Source: Arthrobacter russicus
GTDB lineage: Bacteria; Actinomycetota; Actinomycetes; Actinomycetales; Micrococcaceae
Assembly (NCBI RefSeq): GCF_031454135.1
Contig: NZ_JAVDQF010000001.1
Location: 2,356,001-2,420,000, forward strand
Direction of reading: 5' to 3'
DNA: 64,000 nt
The position numbers and the translations under genes were made by a program. Below are positions 41,965-57,553 of the stretch, one piece after another. Numbering within the stretch: the stretch's first letter is position 1; each line of letters starts with the position of its first letter. The notes beneath the pieces were generated by a model. The model saw nothing but the letters and a program-made list of their open reading frames with translations. It ran no database searches and was not told the DNA's origin.

Positions 41965-42373
41965 CCATCATGGCACGTCGGATCAGGATGAAATCGTGTT
42001 CGCTCAGCGGCAGCACGCCGCGACGGAGTTGGTAGCCCTAATTGGGTGGTCGGGTGAGCTCGAGTTTCTGGTCCAAATCGCTCAACGGCACCGGGGCGCC
42101 GTCGTCGTAGTCGACTTTGCGACGCCAGGGTTTGAAGCCGGCTTCGTCGGCTTGCCAAGGCTCGCCGTCGGCGACCCGGCCTACCGCGGTGAACGCCTTC
42201 AGCGGTTCGCCATCCGGATAACTGGTCTTCGGCGAGTAAAAAAAGACCAGTCCGTCGCCCGGGCTCATCCGGCTGATGCCTTGCGGCTTGCCGCGGTTCG
42301 TCTGCGCGATGCCCAGACCGATGCCGTAGTTGACGTGCTCGGCGCTCGCCACGGCCAACCAGTATTTGCTCAT
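41957..42373 (-). pseudogene. EVE-domain protein gene interrupted by a TAG codon
   Basis: ATG 42373 opens a frame for an EVE/PUA-like protein: SKYWLAVASAEHVNYGIGLGIAQ and SPGDGLVFFYSPKTSYPDGEPLKAFTAVGRV are clear. After 111 codons a TAG (42038-42040 on the opposite strand sequence) occurs where the family has Trp in NWGYQLRRG, and the frame then continues GYQLRRGVLPLSEHDFILIRRAMMAE to TGA at 41957. The complete protein would be 138 residues, the usual EVE length. EVE domains bind modified bases in DNA or RNA. A TGG to TAG change is the simplest explanation; readthrough cannot be excluded. Confidence 0.8.
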
Positions 42374-42397
42374 GACCGAAGCCTCTCACGCTATCCG

Positions 42398-42456
42398 CGA
42401 GCGCACATTTGGTGCGGGTGTTTTCCGAAAACACCCGCACCAAATGTGCGCTCGCA
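42398..42456. repeat. 59-bp perfect palindrome (29-bp arms, 1-base centre)
   Basis: Bases 42398-42426 are the exact complement of 42428-42456 around C42427. It lies between the end of the alcohol dehydrogenase gene and the start of the EVE pseudogene, both leftward, so it is a likely terminator of the former. It has no U-tract. Confidence 0.85.
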
Positions 42457-42482: not shown

Positions 42483-43529
42483 CTACGGGCGGAGCAGCAC
42501 CTTGATTGCGCGACGCTCGTCCATGGCTCGGTAGGCCTCGGCGGCTTCGCTCAGGGGCAGCTCCAAATCGAAGACCTTGCCCGGCTTGAGCCGGCCGTCC
42601 AAGACCTCGGGCAGCAGTTCCGGGATGTAGGTGTGCGCCGGGGCGATTCCCCCGGCCACGTGGATGTTGGTCTCGAAGAGGTAGCGCAGGGGCAGTTCGG
42701 GTCCGCCCGCAGGGACGCCGACGTAGCCCAGGTGCCCGCCCGGCCGCAGCACATGCAGCGCCTGGTCCATGGATTCTTTGGTGCCCACGCATTCCAGGGC
42801 GCAGTCCGCCAGGCCGCCCAGCAGCTCCTTGATCTTGGCGATGCCCTCCTCGCCGCGTTCGGCGACCACATCCGTGGCGCCGAATTCGACCGCGAGCTTC
42901 TGCCGGTCCTCGTGCCGGGACATGATGATGATCCGTTCGGCGCCCAACCGTGCGGCGGCCAGGACTCCGGAAAGCCCGACGGCGCCGTCGCCCACGACGA
43001 CCACGGACTTGCCTGGGCCGACCTCGGCGGAAACCGCAGCGTGGTGTCCGGTGCACATCACGTCGGCGAGGGTGAGCAGATGCGGTACCAAGTCGTCGGA
43101 AGGCATTTCCGGGGTGGCGATCAAGGTGCCATCGGCATACGGCATCCGGACGAATTGGCTCTGCGCACCGGTGACCGGCAGGCCGAAGCCGTCGTTTCCG
43201 CCGAATCCGGTGCCGTGTTCGCAGGCCTGGGTCCAGCCGTTGCGGCAGTTCACGCAGGTGCCGTCGCTGATCGAGAACGGTGAAATCACGAAGTCGCCCG
43301 GCTTCACGGTTTTCACATCTTCGCCGACCGCTTCGACGACGCCGACCAGTTCGTGGCCGATGCCGTGCGGGGTCTTGGTCGGCCGAACGCCGCGGTACGG
43401 CCAGAGATCGGATCCGCAGACGCAGGCGGCGACCACGCGGACGACGGCGTCGGTGGGGTTGAGGATCTCCGGATGCGGCAACTCCTCGACTCGGATGTCG
43501 CCGGGGGCGTGGATCATGGTGGCAAGCAA
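42483..43529 (-). CDS. Zinc-dependent alcohol dehydrogenase (MDR family), 348 residues
   Basis: Starts at TTG 43529 (then LATMIHAPGDIRVEELPHP), which has GAGGAG six bases upstream; the frame opens 23 codons earlier but without a better site. Motifs: ACVCGSDLWPY catalytic Cys, GIGHELVGVV, four structural-zinc cysteines CVNCRNGWTQAC plus neighbours, and Rossmann VVGDGAVGLSGVLAA. It resembles the group that includes threonine/formaldehyde-type dehydrogenases used in detoxification. It is divergent from the second SGNH gene and has a palindrome at its 3' end. Confidence 0.88.
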   Translation of the reverse strand: MLATMIHAPGDIRVEELPHPEILNPTDAVVRVVAACVCGSDLWPYRGVRPTKTPHGIGHELVGVVEAVGEDVKTVKPGDFVISPFSISDGTCVNCRNGWTQACEHGTGFGGNDGFGLPVTGAQSQFVRMPYADGTLIATPEMPSDDLVPHLLTLADVMCTGHHAAVSAEVGPGKSVVVVGDGAVGLSGVLAAARLGAERIIIMSRHEDRQKLAVEFGATDVVAERGEEGIAKIKELLGGLADCALECVGTKESMDQALHVLRPGGHLGYVGVPAGGPELPLRYLFETNIHVAGGIAPAHTYIPELLPEVLDGRLKPGKVFDLELPLSEAAEAYRAMDERRAIKVLLRP

Positions 43530-43617
43530 AGGGGACTCCTCGGAATGTTCAGTGAACTGCGTACGAATAGTTACTTCGGGCCACGATACTCCCCGCATCT
43601 GTACCTAGGATGAAGGT

Positions 43618-52570: not shown

Positions 52571-52649
52571 GCCTGGTCCCACTGAGTAAGCGGGCCCAGT
52601 GGGACAAAACGGCCTGGTCCCACTGAGTTGGCCAACTCAGTGGGACCAG
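52571..52649. repeat. Cluster of inverted GTCCCACTGAGT repeats including a perfect 36-bp palindrome
   Basis: GGTCCCACTGAGT occurs at 52575 and 52616, and in reverse at 52597 (CAGTGGGAC) and 52636. Bases 52614-52631 and 52632-52649 form a perfect palindrome with no spacer, and 52576-52584 pairs with 52597-52605. It lies upstream of the CopD-CtaG gene, after the HU terminator. Confidence 0.75.
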
Positions 52650-52753
52650 ACCGATGCGTTCAAAAGCATCCCTGGCCAATCGAAGCGCCAAGCCTCAAAG
52701 CCGCCAAGCCCCCGGGATTAGCCCAGAATCGGCCGGTACCCGACAATGGAGAA

Positions 52754-56904: not shown

Positions 56905-56965
56905 ATCGAGTGGTCAGGTCTGCACGCTAAACATCGTGTTTGACGTGCAGACCTGACCACTCGAT
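56905..56965. terminator. Long bidirectional hairpin between convergent genes
   Basis: Perfect 22-bp arms (56905-56926 and 56944-56965) enclose a 17-base loop that itself pairs AAACA/TGTTT around TCG, so the stem can extend to about 29 bp. It lies 21 bases after the NHL protein stop and 6 bases from the SnoaL-like gene end. Confidence 0.8.
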
Positions 56966-57498: not shown

Positions 57499-57553
57499 GA
57501 ACGGGCAGTTCGGCAGACCAGACATCGTGTCTGGCCTGCCGAACTGCCCGTTC
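57499..57553. terminator. Long hairpin after the ferritin gene
   Basis: 26-base arms (57499-57524 and 57528-57553) pair at 25 positions with a TCG loop. It lies 21 bases after the stop of the leftward ferritin gene. Loop context ACATCGTGT is shared with the hairpin at 56905. Confidence 0.8.

What the first reader, a model, noticed from the sequence alone, without database searches (positions are those of the whole stretch)
42398..42456. 59-bp perfect palindrome with a single central base
29-bp arms pair without any mismatch. Such a long exact palindrome should be unstable during replication unless selected or recent. It stands 26 bases 3' of the alcohol dehydrogenase gene and 24 bases upstream of a pseudogene. 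It lacks a U-run, so an ordinary intrinsic terminator is not the only option.
Basis: seen in the sequence. Interest (0 to 1): 0.55.

Follow-up and report, generated by a model that had tools for sequence, protein, structure and literature searches.

The report
Long symmetric hairpin at gene end
A perfect 59-base palindrome after a dehydrogenase gene is one copy of a widespread, self-mirroring hairpin family that sits at gene ends in this bacterial family and most likely helps end transcription on both strands.

Summary
The palindrome is real: 29-bp perfect arms around one base, at 42397-42455 (one base left of the stated coordinates). It is not unique. The host genome (same species as Renibacterium sp. 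RGIG571) holds 27 related hairpins, all intergenic; 24 of 27 lie next to a gene 3' end. Relatives occur in 53 of 395 genomes of the family (own included), with very different arm letters but intact pairing. Of 72 relative copies 49 lie between convergent genes, against 5 of 84 other gaps. At one orthologous site (VKOR/ndk, one genus) 57 of 59 species have a long hairpin just after ndk; 19 of 24 pairs show two-sided changes, changes that break pairing are fewer, and loops occur in both orientations. I read the family as bidirectional 3'-end hairpins (terminators, mostly without a U-run), kept perfect by selection plus template-switch copying of one arm from the other. In this species they also form modular, dispersed, unstable repeats. 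A RAYT-type REP is not supported: no Y1 transposase gene. Termination itself is inferred; there are no RNA data here. At the window's own site the hairpin is lineage-specific: the conspecific genome lacks it.

The parts
42397..42425 (.). left arm of the palindrome, 29 bp
42426..42426 (.). single central base
42427..42455 (.). right arm, 29 bp, perfect reverse complement of the left arm
42483..43517 (-). zinc-binding alcohol dehydrogenase gene whose 3' end faces the hairpin, 27 bases away (the ORF can also start at 43598)
42038..42373 (-). EVE-domain gene, start codon 23 bases from the hairpin; in-frame stop near its 3' end, intact copies in G121 and G002

Best explanation
The palindrome is a gene-end hairpin. 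Transcribed from ADH (minus strand) it folds into a 28-29 bp RNA stem 27 nt after the stop codon; because it is symmetric it would do the same to transcripts from the other side. Its likely job is to end transcription and define the mRNA 3' end, with little or no U-run, perhaps helped by NusG/NusA or Rho. The family keeps perfect pairing while its letters change, because (a) unpaired versions are selected against over long times and (b) replication template switching can rewrite one arm from the other and invert the loop. In this species the family has also multiplied as modular units (short hairpin + 41-bp linker, 0-2 repeats, then the long hairpin) and changes quickly between strains. Shown: symmetry, family, gene-end position, two-sided changes, loops in both orientations, modules, strain differences. 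Inferred: termination, template switching as the cause, the way copies spread.
For: Position: 27 of 27 own copies intergenic, 13 convergent, 11 tandem (10 of 11 nearer the 3' end), 3 divergent; own null 27 convergent of 161 gaps, Fisher p 7e-4. 72 relative copies: 49 convergent, 19 tandem (19 of 19 nearer the 3' end), 1 divergent, 2 at contig edge, 1 overlapping a predicted ORF; null 5 convergent of 84 (p 4e-18). The 23 strong hairpins in 221 kb of this genome, of mostly unrelated sequences, all lie outside genes as far as judged (9 convergent, 12 tandem, 1 divergent, 1 at a stretch edge); hairpins of score 10 or more stand after 18 of 66 convergent gene ends, 12 of 84 tandem ends with gap 30 or more, 0 of 48 operon-like ends, 0 in shuffles. 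Pairing: A1, 25 two-sided cells against 9.3 in shuffles. VKOR/ndk site: 57 of 59 species with hairpin score 16 or more, 0 of 60 in 500-nt coding controls reach 14; 150 two-sided cells against 40.7 in shuffles, 95.3% paired. Parsimony on an ndk tree: 88 WC-to-WC double switches against 39 single changes away from a WC pair; inner 19 pairs 60 against 13; 51 of 88 have no G-U path; 5 reverse-complement loop pairs among 31 distinct loops, null 1.08, 1 of 2000. T exceeds A about 2:1 just 3' of the hairpins.
Against: No RNA data. No U-run in this copy; of 35 gene-end hairpins of score 8 or more in this genome only 3 have 5 or more T in the next 8 bases, and a title in a reference list (Czyz 2014, seen, paper not read) says mycobacterial RNA polymerase needs a U-tract. 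At this site a comparable hairpin is absent from G121, G002, G004 and G005. Between the two conspecific genomes changes in 16 orthologous copies are mostly one-sided (46 against 2 compensated), so pairing is not strictly held in the short term. Selfish repeats also accumulate at gene ends.
Confidence: 0.62

Rival explanations
1. A selfish or passively spread palindromic repeat (MITE/REP-like): an unknown enzyme copies the hairpin units; gene ends are simply where insertions do least harm.
For: 27 copies at unrelated gene pairs in one genome; composite units with a shared 41-bp linker at 92-100% identity; many strain differences between conspecifics, including exact presence/absence of a 35-nt hairpin tip and four sites without the copy.
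Against: No Y1 transposase/RAYT in own or conspecific genome, 2 of 38 genomes in all; no clean target duplication seen; a long hairpin persists at one orthologous site in 57 of 59 species; unrelated hairpins occupy the same kind of place.
Confidence: 0.2
2. An mRNA 3'-end stabiliser or RNase III processing hairpin rather than a terminator: transcription ends further on by Rho and the 28-bp stem blocks or is cut by RNases.
For: Very long perfect RNA stem, -63.7 kcal/mol; gene-end position; no U-run.
Against: Strong preference for convergent pairs and a mild T excess downstream fit termination better.
Confidence: 0.13
3. A DNA-level site: the palindrome is bound by a protein or extruded as a cruciform.
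For: Outer motif of the type CGARYGNNCA partly conserved across genera (by eye).
Against: Nearly every position of the arm changes symmetrically, not only a motif; unrelated hairpin sequences fill the same kind of place in the same genome.
Confidence: 0.05

Closest known systems
Bidirectional intrinsic (Rho-independent) terminators; compensatory evolution shown in Bacillus cereus (PMC5381666, abstract and passages read)
   Same: Hairpins at gene ends, some shared by convergent genes; paired bases change together.
   Different: Stems here are 16-31 bp and near-perfect, mostly without a U-tract; double switches outnumber single ones; loops appear in both orientations.
Template-switch-maintained hairpins (PMC8794818, abstract and introduction read)
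   Same: Multibase compensatory changes restoring perfect stems.
   Different: There RNA and rRNA genes; here short gene-end hairpins in one bacterial family.
REP sequences of RAYT/Y1 transposases (definition recalled)
   Same: Repeated, extragenic, palindromic, at gene 3' ends.
   Different: No Y1 transposase gene in the genome; near-perfect instead of imperfect hairpins.
Pneumococcal BOX elements (boxA-boxB(n)-boxC; structure recalled, PMC3049150 seen in a search listing only)
   Same: Modular intergenic repeat with a variable number of middle units.
   Different: Here the units are short hairpin plus 41-bp linker, ending in the long palindrome; sequences were not compared.

Membership tests
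Intrinsic (Rho-independent) terminator | stable GC-rich hairpin soon after a stop codon | tested here: met
   27 nt after the ADH stop, -63.7 kcal/mol
Intrinsic (Rho-independent) terminator | U-tract directly after the stem | tested here: not met
   no U-run on either side of this copy; family only mildly T-rich. The scan matches only an inner 5-bp stem
Intrinsic (Rho-independent) terminator | RNA 3' ends at the hairpin | not testable with these tools
   needs Term-seq
Bidirectional terminator | enriched between convergent genes, hairpin usable on both strands | tested here: met
   for the family; this copy lies between two genes of the same strand
REP / RAYT-mobilised repeat | Y1 transposase (PF01797) in the genome | tested here: not met
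   0 in G000 and G121; 2 of 38 genomes
REP-like repeat (loose sense) | repeated, extragenic, palindromic | tested here: met
   27 copies, all intergenic
MITE | target-site duplication at filled against empty sites | tested here: inconclusive
   four sites without the copy in G121 show deletions or unrelated sequence, no clean duplication
Any Rfam family | match at gathering score | tested here: not met
   0 matches in the window

The most novel reading that the evidence does not exclude
In this actinobacterial family gene-end hairpins are a self-renewing class: replication template switching repeatedly rewrites one arm from the other and flips the loop, so that long U-less terminators stay perfect while their letters turn over, and these ready-made hairpins then seed dispersed repeat families. 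This would give a natural, densely sampled system for testing how perfect hairpins arise and persist.
Probability: 0.35. Interest if true: 0.7.

Novelty: new variant of a known kind. Interest (0 to 1): 0.45.

Why it matters
If right, a puzzling perfect palindrome is explained as part of a hairpin system at gene ends, and the VKOR/ndk site in about 60 species becomes a direct data set on how stems evolve: double switches in one step against stepwise compensation through G-U. It also asks how high-GC actinobacteria terminate transcription when U-runs are rare.

Tried and rejected
RAYT REP: rejected, no Y1 transposase. Rfam family: none. Phage or plasmid origin: the core pattern (24 fixed bases, one free) gave 0 hits in viral contigs, no match in plasmids. 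Literature: core and arm strings occur in 9 papers, none listed with a bacterial repeat as its subject (listing only); word searches showed no description of this family. Clean insertion sites with target duplications were looked for and not found. DNA-uptake words were considered (recalled from terminator literature): the outer motif lies mostly in these repeats (54 hits in all against 10 for the reversed pattern), so I set the idea aside without a further test.

Rows dropped. From the model search (55 matches at E up to 1 on both strands) I counted 27 places; 1127860 and 3813452 were dropped as parts of composite copies already counted, while 3574778 was kept at E 0.18. The ndk set: 61 genomes searched, one without a match (G433), one with N in the gap (L413), leaving 59; 17 of these were left out of alignment A2 by eye because their arms did not align well, leaving 42. 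Each ndk hairpin is the best one found in the 900 nt after the match, so high pairing is partly by construction; that one is found at all is tested by the coding control. Three of 59 gave negative distances to the stop because the matched stretch holds the ndk stop itself. The 72 relative copies are top-scoring ones and partly orthologous to each other, so p-values overstate independence. Gene contexts rest on my own simple codon-usage gene caller, trained on the window. In one search the operon-like ends were searched over at most 50 nt, too short for the longest hairpins. Part of the output was cut, so for some pairs only the counts were seen.

Full report
Observation. The window holds a 59-bp palindrome at 42397-42455: two 29-bp arms, perfect, around one base. 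It stands 27 bases after the stop of a minus-strand zinc alcohol dehydrogenase gene and 23 bases before the start of an EVE-domain gene on the same strand. As RNA it folds at -63.7 kcal/mol, z -10.

The genome. The window is part of a single 3.82-Mb contig. The length 3155250 of the contig of congener G002 is, from recall, that of R. salmoninarum ATCC 33209.

A repeat family. DNA search found 14 copies; a covariance model found 27 places, counting short and diverged forms (rows dropped are told in Tried and rejected). The copies differ in letters but pair: 25 two-sided cells against a shuffle mean of 9.3. The same model matched 53 of 395 genomes of the family, own included, in 10 of 32 genera. 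In the relatives shown (one copy per genome) the arms read very differently, yet 26 to 32 of the 32 inner positions pair.

Modules. In this genome some copies are composite: a short hairpin plus a 41-bp linker, repeated with a 64-bp period once or twice, then the long hairpin. The linker unit has nine near-full matches in the own genome; a partial match of the linker, which I read by eye as a hairpin itself, occurs in G001, G012 and G034 (3 of 58 other genomes). At 648665 the conspecific has the same outer palindrome without the inner 35-nt tip; at 1803216, 2713820 and 1080694 the short form stands in the own genome.

Strain comparison. Of 27 own copies 22 have a family member at the same place in G121, some in another form or with one flank only; four places lack it (the window's own, 139426, 115631, 3632800) and one (3574778) was not located. 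At the window's site G121 has a gene of about 400 bp (an SRPBCC-like protein, judged by eye) and a degraded linker remnant instead of the palindrome. In 16 aligned orthologous copies 46 changes are one-sided, 2 compensated, 5 two-sided without pairing. So over short times copies decay and rearrange.

Position. All 27 own copies are intergenic: 13 convergent, 11 tandem, 3 divergent; 10 of the 11 tandem ones are nearer the 3' end, the window's copy being the exception by four bases. Of 161 gaps in 221 kb of the same genome 27 are convergent (p 7e-4). In 72 relative copies the count is 49 convergent, 19 tandem (all nearer the 3' end), 1 divergent, 2 at an edge, 1 overlapping a predicted ORF, against 5 convergent of 84 other gaps (p 4e-18). 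Many of these copies are orthologous to each other, so the p-value is too small.

The class is wider than the repeat. In the same 221 kb there are 23 hairpins of score 14 or more, two of them members of this family (window 42397 and 648665), the rest of other sequences; none was placed inside a gene and one lies at a stretch edge. Most gene-end hairpins have no U-run. At the ADH 3' end congener G001 has an unrelated hairpin of 61 nt, 16 bases after the stop, while G121, G002, G004 and G005 have none of comparable strength.

One orthologous site in depth. In one genus the convergent pair VKOR/ndk carries such a hairpin (gene names judged by eye from the proteins). An ndk search in 61 genomes, made without regard to the hairpin, gave 59 readable sites; 57 have a hairpin of score 16 or more, the two others 14, and 0 of 60 coding controls reach 14. 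On 42 alignable ones 19 of 24 pairs have two-sided changes, 150 cells against 40.7 in shuffles. On an ndk tree I count 88 Watson-Crick-to-Watson-Crick double switches, 29 single changes to a mismatch and 10 to G-U; 51 of the 88 are of a type that has no G-U path; 36 branches carry double switches, up to 10 on one branch. Five loop sequences occur together with their exact reverse complement, against 1.08 expected (1 of 2000). The tree rests on 411 nt and parsimony can merge two steps, so this supports template switching without proving it. Replacement of whole hairpins by recombination is another way to get many changes on one branch.

Reading. Gene-end position, preference for convergent pairs, absence from genes and maintained pairing fit bidirectional transcription terminators or 3'-end hairpins. 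The missing U-run is a real difference; a title seen in a reference list (Czyz 2014, in PMC8355165) claims that mycobacterial RNA polymerase needs a U-tract.

Noticed in passing
window 52573-52653: Three copies of one arm (GGTCCCACTGAGT type) allow two overlapping alternative hairpins.
   Followed up: no
window 56905-56965 and 57499-57553: Two more long hairpins (93% and 96% complementary) of unrelated sequence at gene ends; same class as the finding.
   Followed up: partly
window 42038-42373: EVE-domain gene with an in-frame stop near its 3' end; intact copies in G121 and G002.
   Followed up: partly
L167 (G121 C14, about 90460-90960): A gene of about 400 bp (SRPBCC-like by eye) stands between EVE and ADH in the conspecific and is missing in the window.
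   Followed up: partly
L076, L079, L096, L366, L370 after the main hairpin; also G000 1080694 and 115631: A third arm (TTAAGTGTCCGTTCGCGC type), a direct repeat of the right arm, follows the hairpin and by eye tracks its GAGCG/GAACG variant.
   Followed up: no
L452, L453, L454, L463: The 41-bp linker resembles a separate intergenic hairpin in three other genomes and once more in the own genome.
   Followed up: no
G000 3712448 against L148: This imperfect hairpin is identical in both conspecific genomes although other copies differ strongly.
   Followed up: no
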